Assembly (NCBI GenBank): GCA_902626365.1
Contig: CACOFE010000003.1
Span: forward strand, 33,145-97,144
Direction of reading: 5' to 3'
Origin: an uncultured Bacteroidota bacterium
Lineage (GTDB): Bacteria > Bacteroidota > Bacteroidia > Flavobacteriales > Flavobacteriaceae
Length of the DNA stretch: 64,000 nucleotides
In this document: one piece after another, positions 57,603-64,000 of the stretch
Position numbering within the stretch: the first letter of the stretch is position 1
Layout of the letters: each line of letters opens with the position of its first letter
Made by a program: the position numbers and the translations under genes
Notes under the pieces: generated by a model
Told to the model about the DNA's origin: nothing
The model's database searches: none
Seen by the model: only the letters and a program-made list of their open reading frames with translations

Positions 57603-59767
57603 TCCTTAAGGGTAATTCTTAAAACTGAGCAGGCCGCTCTTTCTGTGAACTTGTCTTTTCCTCCTCCAAACAAAACCTTAATCCAATTGTCTTTTTCGGG
57701 CGTACCAAGAATTAACAAGTCATAGCTGGCAGAAATTTCTGAAATTGTTTCAACAGGCTTGTCGCTTTTTACCACCTCAACAGTAGCTTTTACTTTTGAT
57801 TGTTTTAATTTTTCTTCTGACCTGTGTTTAATGGTTTCGGTTGTTCTGCTGTTCTCAGAAACAACATGAAGAAGGGTTAGAGTTGCTCCAAAGTGTTTAC
57901 AAACACTGTTGGCTATTCCGATAAAGTTTTTATCCTTTCTACCAGGCCTTAAGGCTAAGACTACTTTGCCAATATATCTCACTCCATTGTCTTTATATAG
58001 CGCAAGGTTTGAGTTTATATTCGCCAACAACCAGCCTATTGGATTGCTGATAAAAATACCAGAGTTTGGTCTTGCGCCCCAGCCCATAACAAGCCATTTA
58101 CATGTTTCTTGGGAGCTGAGCCTATTTATAGTTTGTGACAGCTCATAGGTTACTACCGCATCGAAACCAACTGAGAGGGTTTTTGAATCTGCAAGTCTTT
58201 GTATTCTTCTTTTTAATGATGTAGAAGCGGGAGAATCTTCCATAAAAACAGAGGAGTCTGTTTGGTTTGGCACCTCCGTAATATCAAAAGCTTGTATAGA
58301 GTTTTTATTGTTTAGTGCCGAGGCCATCTCGACAAGCATTTCTGGTGACTCTTCTTCTCCCAGCAAAGGAACAACAACTTCGGCATCAGTAGTAATAGCG
58401 TCTTCTGTAACGTCAGTGTCATCAGCATACTCTCTGATTTTTGATGCATCTTTAAAAAAGAACGACATAACGCCGTAGCTTGAAGCTATTCCGCTTCTGT
58501 CCGATTTGCTTCCGTAGAGCAAAAAGATAAAGAACCCCAAAGCTACCACACCTATCACTGAAACGACAGGCATAATGCCTAGAAATGCAAGAAGAACTAT
58601 TCCGCTTAGAATTCCGAAAATCTGTACATATGGATATAGGGGCGACTTAAATGTTGGCTTGTACCACTGTGCATTTGTTTCTCTCAAAACAATAACCGTG
58701 AGCTCATTAAATATAAACATCAAAACTTTAAATGCGCTTGCAAGTTTTGCTATCTTAACTACGTCTAAAAAAACAATCGCTAGTGCAATAAGGGTTGATG
58801 TTGTAAGAATTGCTGAAACCGGGGTCATAAACTTTGAGTTGATCCCTGATAAATAACCTGGAAGTAGTCCGTCTTTGGACATAGCAAACGGAAACCTTGA
58901 TGAAGCTAAAACCCCAGAGTTTGCCATTGATAAAAGCGTAAGTGCCCCAACCACACCAGCAACTAAGCCAAAGGTGTCTCCTCCAATTGTTTGAAAAAGC
59001 GTGTGTATAGGCTTAATGTCTGTTGCTAAAATTGAAGCCTCTACATTCCCAACCAGCGCAAGGGCAACCAAACAGTATATTGTAGTTATCAAAAACAAGG
59101 AAATGATCATTGTTAAAGGAAGGTTTTTGGCTGGGTTTTTAATCTCTCCTGCAATGGCAGCAATTTTTGTTACTCCTGCATAAGAAATGTATAAAAACGC
59201 CACTCCAGCTATAAACCCATTTGCGCCATCAGAAAAAACGGGCTCAGTTAGCTTTGTGTCAAAAGAGCTAAACCCAAGCACTATAATAACAATCAGAGAA
59301 ATTAAACTAACCGACACGATAAACAGCTGCGTCTTTTCAACTTTCTTTAGCCCAAAAACATTTAATAAAAATATTAGCAAAAGAGCTAGTAGGGCAATGG
59401 CCTTGGTATAAGCCTCGTCAATGTTTACAACCACATATAAGTATGCGCTAAGACCAACTAATGAAAATGCACTTTTTAGAAGAAGTGACAACCAAAGACC
59501 TATTCCTGCGATGGTTCCGAAAAGTGGGCCAAAAGCTCTTTCGATATATACATAGGTTCCTCCTGATTTTGGCATTGCTGTGCCTAGCTCAGACTTTGAA
59601 AGAACCGCCGGCAATATACATAGTGCTGCCACTAAAAACGCCAGCCACACAGAAGACCCTGTAATTCCTACTGCTAGGCCTGGGAGGACAAAAATACCGC
59701 TCAGCATTCCTCCAATACTCACCGCAATAGCCCCAGGCAAAGACAATGTTCTCTCTAATTTCTTCAA
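57599..59767 (-). CDS. APC-family amino-acid permease fused to two universal-stress-protein-like domains
   Basis: A 722-residue protein starting with TTG at 59767. The first 420 or so residues are an APC transporter (about 12 segments), with the family start [30 protein letters not shown] and [13 protein letters not shown]. From about residue 455 come two soluble UspA-like domains: the first ends near [20 protein letters not shown], the second has [15 protein letters not shown]...[10 protein letters not shown] and a final [12 protein letters not shown]...[19 protein letters not shown]. The soluble part probably regulates transport by binding a nucleotide. The substrate is unknown. Confidence 0.88.
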
Positions 59768-59811
59768 ATTATTGTTTTATATTTATTAAAAATACTAAAT
59801 ATATATTTCAA

Positions 59812-60663
59812 TTGAATTTATACCCCATAATTGCTGGAAACTTTATGCTTGACGGTGGCGCTATGTTTGGTGTTGTTCCTAAATCTATTTGGCAAAAAAC
59901 CAACCCGGCTGACAGCAACAATATGGTGAAAATTGCTGCTCGTTGTTTGCTTGTTGAAGACGAGGACAAGCTGGTTTTAATTGATGCCGGCATGGGCGAC
60001 AAGCAAAGTGAAAAGTTTTTCAGTTATTACTACAGGTGGGGAGAAGACACCCTTGAGTCCTCCTTAAAAAAACATGGGTTTCACCCCGATGATGTAACAG
60101 ATGTTTTTCTCACCCATCTACATTTTGATCATTGCGGCGGCGCTGTAATTAAGACCCGTGAAGGCTCTCTTGAAACTACTTTTAAAAATGCAAAATACTG
60201 GAGCAACAAAGATCATTGGGAGTGGGCAATGAAACCCAACAAAAGAGAGGCGGCTTCTTTTCTGAAAGAAAATATTCATCCGATTATTGGATCTGGTCAA
60301 TTGAATTATTTAGACAAAGACGAAAACAATTATTTAACCAAATCTAATCTTGGGTTTGATGTTTTGTTTGTTGATGGCCACACTGAAAAACAAATGATTC
60401 CGATCATTAGTTATAAAGGGCAAAAAATTGCCTTTGCTGCTGATCTTGTTCCCACGCATGGCCATATACCCCTGCCGTATATTCCGGGATATGATATTCG
60501 TCCGCTAATGTCTTTGCAGGAGAAAGAATTATTCTTAAATTATTGTCTTGAAAAAAACGTTCATCTGTTCTTTGAACATGATGCTTTTGTAGAGCTTGCT
60601 TCGCTTCAAAAAACAGACAGAGGTGTTCGTCTAAACAAAAAACTGAACCTGCTCGACTTATGA
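59812..60663 (+). CDS. Metallo-beta-lactamase-fold hydrolase
   Basis: I take TTG at 59812 as start, giving a 283-residue protein beginning MNLYPIIAGNFMLDGGAMFGVVPK, the usual start of this flavobacterial family; an ATG at 59746 would run back across the start of the APC gene. Metal ligands of the fold are in THLHFDHCGGAV (His102, His104, Asp106, His107), followed by VDGHTEKQ and ADLVPTHGH. An early VLIDAGMGDK marks the fold. The substrate is unknown. The stop overlaps the next start in an ATGA junction, so the next gene is translationally coupled. Confidence 0.85.
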   Translation: MNLYPIIAGNFMLDGGAMFGVVPKSIWQKTNPADSNNMVKIAARCLLVEDEDKLVLIDAGMGDKQSEKFFSYYYRWGEDTLESSLKKHGFHPDDVTDVFLTHLHFDHCGGAVIKTREGSLETTFKNAKYWSNKDHWEWAMKPNKREAASFLKENIHPIIGSGQLNYLDKDENNYLTKSNLGFDVLFVDGHTEKQMIPIISYKGQKIAFAADLVPTHGHIPLPYIPGYDIRPLMSLQEKELFLNYCLEKNVHLFFEHDAFVELASLQKTDRGVRLNKKLNLLDL

Positions 60664-62405
60664 AAAAACTATTATTCTTTTTTTTGTTTCCCTTTGTTGC
60701 GATAGCTCAGTCTAACGGAGTAATGGACGACTATTATAACTCGATTACTGACTGGAATATTTCAAGCGCCGCTTTAAAAACTGAGCTTAACACATTAATT
60801 TCAACAAATCATGTTAATTTGCCCTACACTTCTGCAAATGAAGATACCTGGGACGCTTTACAAATAAGTGACCTAAAAGAAAGCACAAATGATGTTTATT
60901 TAATTTATGGCTTTGATGAGGTTCTGACCGATGGCGTGCCAAAAAACGACTATACTAGAAGCAAAACTTTAATGCAGGGGGGCAGTAATGATATTGGTTA
61001 TTGGAACAGAGAACACATGTTTCCTAAGTCTCTTGCAACGCCTGCTCTTACGACATCCAATTCTTCCGGAGGGCCTTCGGGAAATGATTTGCATAATCTT
61101 AGGGCTTGTGATTTTCAAATGAATGCATCAAGGAATAATAATGTTTATGGCGACGGTTCTGGAGACTCTGTTTTAAATAGTGGTGTTTTTTTTCCAGGCG
61201 ACGGTAGTGGAACTGGAGGAGATGATTACCGTGGTGATGTCGCAAGAGCAATAATGTATATGTATATTCGATATCCTTCGGAGATAAACCCAAATGATGT
61301 TGCTTCTTCAAGCAACAATTACCATGAAGACATGCCTGATATTTTTTTAGAGTGGAACAGATTAGACGAGCCAAGCGACATTGAAAAATTAAGAAATAAT
61401 ACTTTTGAATCGAAGCAAGGAAATCGAAATCCTTTTATTGACAACCCATATCTTGCCCACCTTATCTGGGGTGGTCCAACGCCACCGGTCGCGGACTGGT
61501 GGGATCTTTCTTCTCCGAGGATTACTTTTAACAGCACAAGCTCTGTCAACGAGACCAATGGAGATGTCTCAACAAATATTAGTGCAACTATGTCGAGCTA
61601 CAGTGCTCCGGTTACCATAAGTATTTCTGTTGATGGATCTAGCACTGCTGAGAATGGAGACTATACTTTAGACACTTCTTCGCTAACGTTTAACAGCGAT
61701 GGCTCTCAAAATATTTCTGTTACAATAAAAAATGATGACGACAATCATAATGAAACGATCATTCTAACTGTTTCGGTTGATGAGGGATCGTCGGCAAATT
61801 TGGTTAATAGCCAGCATACTATTTCCGTTACCGACGATGAGAAAGAATTAATAATTACTGAGCTGGCTGACCCACAAAACACGTCTGGCTCTAATAGATA
61901 CAGATATGTAGAAGTTTATAATTCTTCTAATAGAAGCGTAGATTTATCAAATTATTATCTGTTACGATGGACTAATGGTAATTCAGACCCAACTTCTAAG
62001 ATTTCTTTAAGCTCTTCTTGTGGTTCGTCATTAGCGCCCAACACCTTTTGTATAATAAGTAATGATAATGTGGGTGACTCCGATTTTAGAACGATTTATG
62101 GTTTTGAGCCTGATGATAATGCTGATGACGGAGGCCCTGTAGATAGCAACGGAGACGACAACATTGCTATTGTTAGCTCGTCTAGCGGAATAACTTATGG
62201 GGACTCTTCAACATGGACAGTTATTGATATGTTTGGTGTAGCGGGTGAAGACGGCACTGGCACTGGACATGAGTTTGAAGACGGAAGAGCGGAAAGAGTC
62301 AGTACGACAACGATACCTAAATCTGTTTGGGATGTCAACGACTGGGACATTGATAATGATAGCGGGGGGGGGGAGTGGAAATCAATATGCTCCTACAGGT
62401 TTTGA
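60660..62405 (+). CDS. Secreted endonuclease I with Calx-beta and lamin-tail domains, N-terminal part before a frame change
   Basis: A signal peptide covers about 1-17 (FVAIAQ). Endonuclease I (EndA/NucM type) follows, to about 270: WNREHMFPKSL holds the catalytic-base His119, and KQGNRNPFIDNPYLA is the second family motif. A Calx-beta domain (about 285-395) and a lamin-tail domain (about 398-565, from ELIITELADPQNTSG) follow. The frame then meets a run of ten G at 62364-62373 and stops at 62405 after ten foreign residues (EWKSICSYRF). The natural protein very likely continues in the next frame to the window end. Extracellular DNA degradation, perhaps for phosphate or nitrogen, is the expected role. 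Confidence 0.85.
   Translation: MKKLLFFFLFPFVAIAQSNGVMDDYYNSITDWNISSAALKTELNTLISTNHVNLPYTSANEDTWDALQISDLKESTNDVYLIYGFDEVLTDGVPKNDYTRSKTLMQGGSNDIGYWNREHMFPKSLATPALTTSNSSGGPSGNDLHNLRACDFQMNASRNNNVYGDGSGDSVLNSGVFFPGDGSGTGGDDYRGDVARAIMYMYIRYPSEINPNDVASSSNNYHEDMPDIFLEWNRLDEPSDIEKLRNNTFESKQGNRNPFIDNPYLAHLIWGGPTPPVADWWDLSSPRITFNSTSSVNETNGDVSTNISATMSSYSAPVTISISVDGSSTAENGDYTLDTSSLTFNSDGSQNISVTIKNDDDNHNETIILTVSVDEGSSANLVNSQHTISVTDDEKELIITELADPQNTSGSNRYRYVEVYNSSNRSVDLSNYYLLRWTNGNSDPTSKISLSSSCGSSLAPNTFCIISNDNVGDSDFRTIYGFEPDDNADDGGPVDSNGDDNIAIVSSSSGITYGDSSTWTVIDMFGVAGEDGTGTGHEFEDGRAERVSTTTIPKSVWDVNDWDIDNDSGGGEWKSICSYRF
62364..62373 (+). repeat. Ten-base G homopolymer at a frame junction
   Basis: A run of ten G in otherwise AT-rich coding DNA. 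With nine G the codons read AGC GGG GGG GGG AGT GGA AAT, giving SGGGSGN, and both flanking frames join into one long gene. With ten the frame closes at 62405. Confidence 0.95.
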
Positions 62406-64000
62406 TCCTGGATATTGGATTGGAGCCACAGACATAGACACGTGGACCGGCCGCTCAAATACCAGCTGGGCAACAGCCGGCAACTGGTCAAGCGGCGTTA
62501 TTCCTGCAACAGGAGATAAGGTTTTTATTCATAATGCCGCTAATGATCCTGATATTTCAACCGACATAACTCTTACAGATATTACTGTAAAAACTAATGG
62601 TGTTTTAGACATTGAAGCTACTGGATCACTAAGCCTTTCTGGCAATTATTCAAATAGCGGTACAGTAAATCTAAATTCTTCTTCGTCTACATACTCATCT
62701 TTAATTATTCAGGGAACTTCGTCTGGAAATATAACTTACCATCGATATGTAAATTCTGTCAGTAACGGTTCTGGATGGGATTTGATCGGTTCACCTGTTG
62801 GTGGCTTGTCAATTAATTCATTTGCTACCACAAATGATACGCCGCTAGCAACTGGAGGGGGAAGTGGTTCAAATCAATATGCTATTGGAACCTTTGATAA
62901 CTCGCAAAGCTCAACAGTAGCTGCGTGGGAAAATTATACAAGTGATGGGGCGGGCTCTACCACTAACATAAGTGACGCTGGGAACTTTACAAAAGGAAAG
63001 GGGTATCAAATGGCAACTGATAGTGGTGCAACATTAGCCTTTACCGGAACTGTTGATACTGATGCAACCGAGACCGTTTCTATTGAAAGCTTTACAGATG
63101 CTTCTGGGTATAGATGGAATTTAATTTCTAATCCTTATCCATCCTATATTACAATTGGGCCTAATACAACGGCCGACACCTTCCTAGAAGTTAATGATGA
63201 TGTAATTGATGACACGTTTGTTGGGGTATATGGATATGATGCGAATACTGATAATGATGGTTTAAGTGAGCTTTTCGATATTTATAATAATGCTTCATCA
63301 GCGAAGATCGCACCAGGCCAGGCATTTATGGTGGCTGCTAGAAGTACTACTGCTGCCAACATTACATTTAAAGAAGAAATGCAAACAGTCACTGGATCAG
63401 ACGACTTTATCTCTGGTGATATAATGGAAAACACAGAGGTTGAGCTTAGAATTTATAATGATGGCACTGGCATTGGTAAAACGAGATTATTCTTTGACGA
63501 GGGGCTTGGTATGGGTCTAGATCGTGGATGGGATGCTGGTCATTATTATGAAAATGCCGCTATCATGACGAGATTAATTGAGGAAGATGAAGGTCATGGG
63601 ATGGCGATTAACGCTATGGGACTTGATGCTATGGAAAACGCAGTGATTCCCCTTGTGATTAATCAATCAGCTGGTCAAGAGTTTAGAATTAATCTTCACA
63701 CAGCAACTATTCCAGATCCTAATGTTTACCTGGAAGATATTGAGGAAGGAACCTTCACCAACCTTTATGAAGGCGATTTTGTTTACACTCCTACTAGCGA
63801 TTTAGAAGGAGTTGGAAGATTCTTCATCCACATGAGTACTGATACAATGAGTGATGAAGAGGTATCAACAAGTATGTTGAATGCTTACAAAGAAATAGAT
63901 GCTAGCTACATCACAATAGAGGGATTAGCTACACAAACAAATGAAACTAACGTTAGTTTATATAATATTCTCGGAAGAGAAGTATTATCTACTACTCTTA
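62374..64000 (+). pseudogene. C-terminal continuation of the endonuclease in the +1 frame, running out of the window
   Basis: The frame is open without a stop from the G-run to position 64000, over 540 codons, and starts SGNQYAPTGFDPGYWIG, the natural follow-on of a lamin-tail protein. A beta-strand region follows (TWTGRSNTSWATAGNWSSGVIPATGD) and then several repeats, with the start of a T9SS sorting domain at the window edge (NVSLYNILGREVLSTTL). It has no start of its own near 62374, so alone it would not be translated unless the frame shifts. I list it as pseudogene only because of the frame break; it may be a working part of a phase-variable gene or a sequencing artefact. Confidence 0.8.

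What the first reader, a model, noticed from the sequence alone, without database searches (positions are those of the whole stretch)
62364..62373. G10 tract splits a secreted endonuclease gene: phase variation or sequence error
The frames either side of the ten-G run belong to one protein and rejoin cleanly with nine G. Poly-G tracts in coding DNA of AT-rich genomes are typical slippage sites, and the gene makes a secreted surface protein, the usual class of phase-variable genes. In the ten-G state the T9SS signal is lost, so the nuclease would not be exported by that route.
Basis: partly seen in the sequence, partly recalled or inferred. Interest (0 to 1): 0.65.

Follow-up and report, generated by a model that had tools for sequence, protein, structure and literature searches.

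The report
G-run length error splits nuclease gene
A run of ten Gs breaks the reading frame of a secreted DNA-cutting enzyme gene in a marine flavobacterium, but equally long runs in draft genomes of its relatives break housekeeping genes in the same way, so this is most likely a sequence-length error and not a genetic on/off switch.

Summary
A G10 run at 62364-62373 splits one protein: an Endonuclease_1/Calx-beta/LTD N-terminal half (ORF 60660-62405) and a C-terminal half one frame over, open to the window end, which is also the contig end. Four congeneric orthologues are single open frames. The two complete ones end in a T9SS sorting domain. They encode the same glycine linker with mixed codons and no run longer than five G.

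The phase-variation reading is not supported. In this genus, G/C runs of 10 disrupt the reading frame in 5 of 5 cases, and in 6 of 7 readable runs of 9 or more other than this one. The victims are mostly housekeeping genes: LepA, PurD, RadA, PorX, a rhomboid and an AGCS symporter. Runs of 7-8 are almost always in frame (31 of 34). Two congeners are single-cell amplified genomes, from a workflow with a published 3.0 indels per 100 kbp.

One G10 is also unremarkable in 1.3 Mb (about 0.3 expected by composition). The likeliest account is an intact nuclease gene with a +1 length error in a single-cell-type assembly. A real but unselected slippage mutation comes second, and evolved phase variation is unlikely. 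No reads or same-species strains were available, so the artefact is inferred.

The parts
62364..62373 (+). G10 homopolymer in an inter-domain glycine linker (DSGGG|SGNQY); one base too many for the conserved frame
60660..62405 (+). N-terminal part of the secreted nuclease: signal-peptide-like start, Endonuclease_1 (residues 37-263), Calx-beta (287-393, sub-threshold), Lamin Tail Domain (394-506, sub-threshold); stops 11 codons after the tract in the ten-G state
62365..63999 (+). C-terminal part of the same protein in the shifted frame, cut by the contig end; the orthologues end in a T9SS type A sorting domain
59746..60663 (+). Upstream metallo-beta-lactamase-like gene (HxHxDH motif seen by eye), overlapping the nuclease start by 4 bases; same order in G008 and G014

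Best explanation
The gene is an intact, conserved ~1,150-aa Endonuclease I-family nuclease exported by the type IX secretion system. In this species the glycine linker is encoded by a natural G-run, and the ten-G length that breaks the frame is a +1 length error made during whole-genome amplification, library PCR, sequencing or assembly of a draft genome that is probably single-cell derived. Shown: the frame break, the intact orthologues, the variable non-G coding of the linker in relatives, and the same kind of break in housekeeping genes across sister genomes. Inferred: that the true length is in frame, that this genome is single-cell derived, and that the extra base is technical and not present in the cell.
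For: Orthologues in G008, G014, G007 and G015 are single open frames of more than 1,000 aa with linker codons GGC-GGA-GGA, GGG-GGA-GGC-GGC, GGA-GGG-GGT and GGC-GGT-GGT. Other G/C runs of 9 or more in the genus break RadA, LepA, PurD and PorX, with one NCBIfam profile continuing across each run, plus an AGCS symporter by motif. A rhomboid is broken in G012, while 14 of 16 other congeneric hits, this genome included, keep a longer frame there (250-253 aa). PorX is C9 and broken in G010, C8 and in frame in the close relative G008. G8 runs are 23 in frame and 3 out; all 8 readable own G7 runs are in frame; runs of 9 or more are 1 in and 7 out, this one included (Fisher p 3e-5). These plate numbers belong to a single-cell set whose workflow gave 3.0 indels per 100 kbp (PMC6122165). 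Both halves evolve under constraint (dN/dS 0.11-0.26 against G008 and G014).
Against: No reads were available, and the window genome itself is not named, so its single-cell origin is inferred from its 68% completeness, 0% contamination, 63 contigs and its sisters. Sorting runs by observed length enriches for over-called runs, because shorter true lengths are commoner; the length trend is therefore expected from any slippage, technical or biological. dN/dS over species-level distances cannot see a recent or reversible mutation.
Confidence: 0.75

Rival explanations
1. Real but unselected slippage: the sequenced cell truly carried G10, an ordinary replication-slippage mutation in a fortuitously long G run. 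The allele is a sporadic loss, or low-level heterogeneity, of the C-terminal half and the T9SS signal.
For: Runs of 9-10 G are intrinsically unstable in vivo (established knowledge), and the tract is peculiar to this genome. If a single cell was sampled, its private mutations would show.
Against: It would require private frame breaks in LepA, RadA, PurD and PorX in other cells of the genus as well, which are unlikely to be viable or tolerated.
Confidence: 0.16
2. Evolved C-terminal phase variation: reversible G9/G10 slippage toggles between a T9SS-exported full-length nuclease and a truncated nuclease without its sorting signal.
For: It is the longest G run in the genome, lies in a secreted-protein gene, and the in-frame state is one base away. 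C-terminal phase variation by poly-G is documented in Helicobacter canadensis (PMC2823697). Long poly-G tracts (13-15) occur at surface-related genes elsewhere in the family.
Against: The tract is not conserved in any of four orthologues. It is mid-gene. Run length is near chance for the genome, and same-length breaks in the genus hit housekeeping genes.
Confidence: 0.06
3. Transcriptional or translational slippage on a fixed G10 restores the frame in a fraction of products, so the gene makes both short and long proteins.
For: Homopolymers of this length can cause polymerase slippage (established knowledge), and the downstream frame is constrained.
Against: Relatives have no slippery run, and the constraint is explained as well by an intact gene.
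Confidence: 0.03

Closest known systems
Homopolymer-length indel errors in single-cell (MDA/WGA-X, Illumina, SPAdes --sc) assemblies
   Same: One-base length change at the longest G/C runs, regardless of gene function; named sister genomes come from this kind of data (3.0 indels per 100 kbp, PMC6122165)
   Different: Not proven here by reads; the window genome's own record is not named
Poly-G C-terminal phase variation (Helicobacter canadensis, PMC2823697)
   Same: G10 in a coding region; a one-base change swaps the C-terminus
   Different: There, read data showed a mixture of lengths at every tract and the late tracts were all G10 or more. Here there is one mid-gene tract, no conservation in relatives and no read data
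T9SS-secreted Endonuclease I family proteins (PF04231 + LTD + Por_Secre_tail)
   Same: Domain order and C-terminal sorting domain in the orthologues
   Different: The window copy is split by the G10 and truncated by the contig end

Membership tests
Poly-G phase-variable (contingency) gene | Repeat tract whose one-base length change toggles the frame | tested here: met
   upstream and downstream frames differ by one base across G10
Poly-G phase-variable (contingency) gene | Tract kept in orthologues or strains | tested here: not met
   Four congeneric orthologues have interrupted glycine codons; no same-species strain was available
Poly-G phase-variable (contingency) gene | Length mixture within the population or read set | not testable with these tools
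   No reads held
Poly-G phase-variable (contingency) gene | Out-of-frame tracts concentrated in surface/contingency genes of the organism and not in essential genes | tested here: not met
   Runs of 9 or more in the genus break LepA, RadA, PurD, PorX, a rhomboid and an AGCS symporter
Homopolymer assembly error in a single-cell genome | Frame breaks depend on run length, not gene function | tested here: met
   runs of 7-8 in frame 31 of 34, runs of 9 or more in frame 1 of 8 (includes this tract)
Homopolymer assembly error in a single-cell genome | Source data are single-cell amplified | tested here: inconclusive
   Two sister genomes are AG-333-B03 and AG-390-P14; the window's own record is unnamed
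T9SS-secreted Endonuclease I | Endonuclease_1 domain | tested here: met
   PF04231, E 7e-33, residues 37-263
T9SS-secreted Endonuclease I | C-terminal T9SS sorting domain | tested here: inconclusive
   Present in orthologues (TIGR04183); the window copy is cut by the contig end inside this region

The most novel reading that the evidence does not exclude
A marine flavobacterium reversibly switches the T9SS export of a nuclease by poly-G slippage in an inter-domain linker, giving an exported long form and a short form without the sorting signal.
Probability: 0.06. Interest if true: 0.55.

Novelty: not a real feature. Interest (0 to 1): 0.13.

Why it matters
The nuclease gene should be annotated as one protein with a suspected length error, not as a pseudogene or a phase-variable locus. 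More generally, G/C runs of 9 or more in draft genomes of this genus should not be read as phase variation or gene loss without reads: here they falsely suggest loss of LepA, RadA, PurD and PorX.

Tried and rejected
Viral contigs: no relative. Genome contigs: only the two sister genomes already seen, no second genome of this species. Metagenome scan: cap 0, not used. Papers: none found reporting poly-G phase variation of T9SS cargo or a poly-G tract in this genus; F. psychrophilum 'phase variation' is a colony-type remark without a homopolymer. A two-colour chemistry origin of over-called G was considered; the data paper's text does not mention NextSeq, so it is not claimed. The automatic frame classifier mis-scored L035, L036 and L037; these were read by hand and L035 was checked against congeners. 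One Pfam call failed on a wrong frame.

Full report
What is there. The window contains G10 at 62364-62373. Upstream, an ATG frame from 60660 encodes a signal-peptide-like start, an Endonuclease_1 domain (PF04231, E 7e-33), and weaker Calx-beta and Lamin Tail domains, and stops at 62405. Downstream, the frame one base over is open to 63999. The window end is the end of contig C3, so the C-terminus is missing from this assembly.

One protein. Protein search of the 21 held genomes of the genus found four full orthologues (G008 73%, G014 70%, G007 56%, G015 55% identity over the N-terminal half). Each is a single open frame of more than 1,000 aa that continues straight through the linker. Two complete orthologues (1,151 and 1,141 aa) end in a T9SS type A sorting domain. 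At the linker they read DSGGGSS, DTGGGGS, DTGGGDS and VSGGGDG with mixed glycine codons and at most five consecutive G. The window copy reads DSGGG and, shifted by one base, GGGSGNQY. The observation and the nine-G rejoining are therefore right. Both halves show constraint against G008 and G014 (dN/dS 0.11-0.14 upstream, 0.23-0.26 downstream), though that cannot date a recent change.

How unusual is the run? It is the longest G run in the 1.3-Mb genome and the only one of 9 or more; two runs of 8 and nine runs of 7 also exist. From the window's own base and neighbour frequencies, 0.016 runs of 10 or more are expected per 64 kb and 0.33 per 1.3 Mb. The run needs no special explanation at genome scale. 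In the window, no other long homopolymer breaks a gene: every other A/T run of 8 or more and G/C run of 6 or more is in frame or upstream of a gene start.

The key test: what do equally long runs do elsewhere in the genus? I listed all G/C runs of 9 or more in 21 congeneric genomes and runs of exactly 8 (30 of 32 had a locus), and read the frames around them. Of eight readable coding runs of 9 or more, seven break the frame, this one included. The others are RadA (profile positions 1-87 before, 91-452 after), LepA (1-178, 184-594), PurD (1-234, 240-422) and PorX (2-201, 209-513), all by NCBIfam, plus a rhomboid and an AGCS symporter. The rhomboid frame is cut to 77 aa in G012 but is 250-253 aa in 14 of the 16 other genomes with a hit, this genome included; the remaining two are shorter (70 aa close to a contig end, and a divergent 208-aa one) and were not examined. 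PorX is C9 and broken in G010, C8 and in frame in the near-identical G008 stretch. By contrast, 23 of 26 readable runs of 8 and all 8 readable own runs of 7 are in frame. The split into readable and unreadable runs was made by hand. Runs of 9 or more versus 7-8: Fisher p = 3e-5. Part of this trend is expected from sorting by observed length. What matters is that the broken genes are mostly housekeeping genes and that the breaks compared with relatives (PorX, rhomboid, LepA) are private to one genome.

A further case outside the genus points the same way. In G101 (66% complete), a G13 run disrupts ffh, an essential gene by established knowledge, in the middle of its conserved GDSRGG motif.

Where the data come from. 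AG-333 and AG-390 are sort plates of a marine single-cell genome set assembled with SPAdes --sc after MDA or WGA-X, for which the authors give average error rates of 1.5 misassemblies, 3.0 indels and 5.0 mismatches per 100 kbp (PMC6122165). At that rate about 39 indels would be expected in 1.3 Mb. The window's genome (63 contigs, 68% complete, 0% contamination) has the same profile, but its record is not named, so this is inference. Short-read platforms lose accuracy with homopolymer length, clearly by 8-mers (PMC11140927).

Phase variation weighed. In its favour: a one-base toggle, a secreted protein, and the known phenomenon of poly-G C-terminal switching in Helicobacter canadensis (PMC2823697). 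The family also contains longer poly-G runs at plausible surface loci (an MBOAT-like acyltransferase with G13 in G047, G15 upstream of a membrane-barrel-like protein in G043), so such switching may exist in Flavobacteriaceae-type relatives. Against it here: no relative keeps the tract, the tract is mid-gene, and same-length breaks in the genus fall on housekeeping genes.

Verdict. A real, unselected slippage mutation is next (0.16), evolved phase variation 0.06, slippage rescue 0.03. The deciding evidence would be reads, which I could not access.

Noticed in passing
L081 1498-1510 (reverse strand; G047:C2:353240-353252): G13 splits an MBOAT-like O-acyltransferase (78 aa / 355 aa frames; identified by eye) in a 99%-complete genome of the same family: a better poly-G phase-variation candidate than the finding itself.
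   Followed up: partly
L083 1496-1510 (reverse strand; G043:C1:1093744): G15 about 45 bases upstream of the start of a secreted membrane-barrel-like protein; G043 (99% complete) holds several other G10+ runs, so promoter-type poly-G switching is possible there.
   Followed up: partly
L090 1501-1515 (G044:C2:2981905): G15 at the beginning of a 255-aa membrane-protein reading frame that looks like an acyltransferase; possible phase-variable gene.
   Followed up: no
L089 1498-1510 (reverse strand; G101:C19:10974): G13 breaks ffh within its conserved GDSRGG motif in a 66%-complete genome; almost certainly a sequence error.
   Followed up: partly
L034, L035, L036, L037, L045, L047 near position 1501: G/C runs of 9-10 break PorX, rhomboid, PurD, AGCS symporter, RadA and LepA in sister genomes; in the rhomboid the run also seems to replace a conserved Ile codon next to a natural G5.
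   Followed up: yes
window 62379-62391 and 62871-62883: Identical 13-mer AAATCAATATGCT just after the G10 and again 492 bases downstream, each preceded by a G-rich stretch and AGTGG; orthologues have a different linker at the first site, suggesting local recombination or copying.
   Followed up: no
window ~63642-63996 and G000:C2:5675-6032 (L002): The region before the T9SS tail is 81% identical in DNA to another locus of the genome; such shared tails probably explain why the contig ends here.
   Followed up: no
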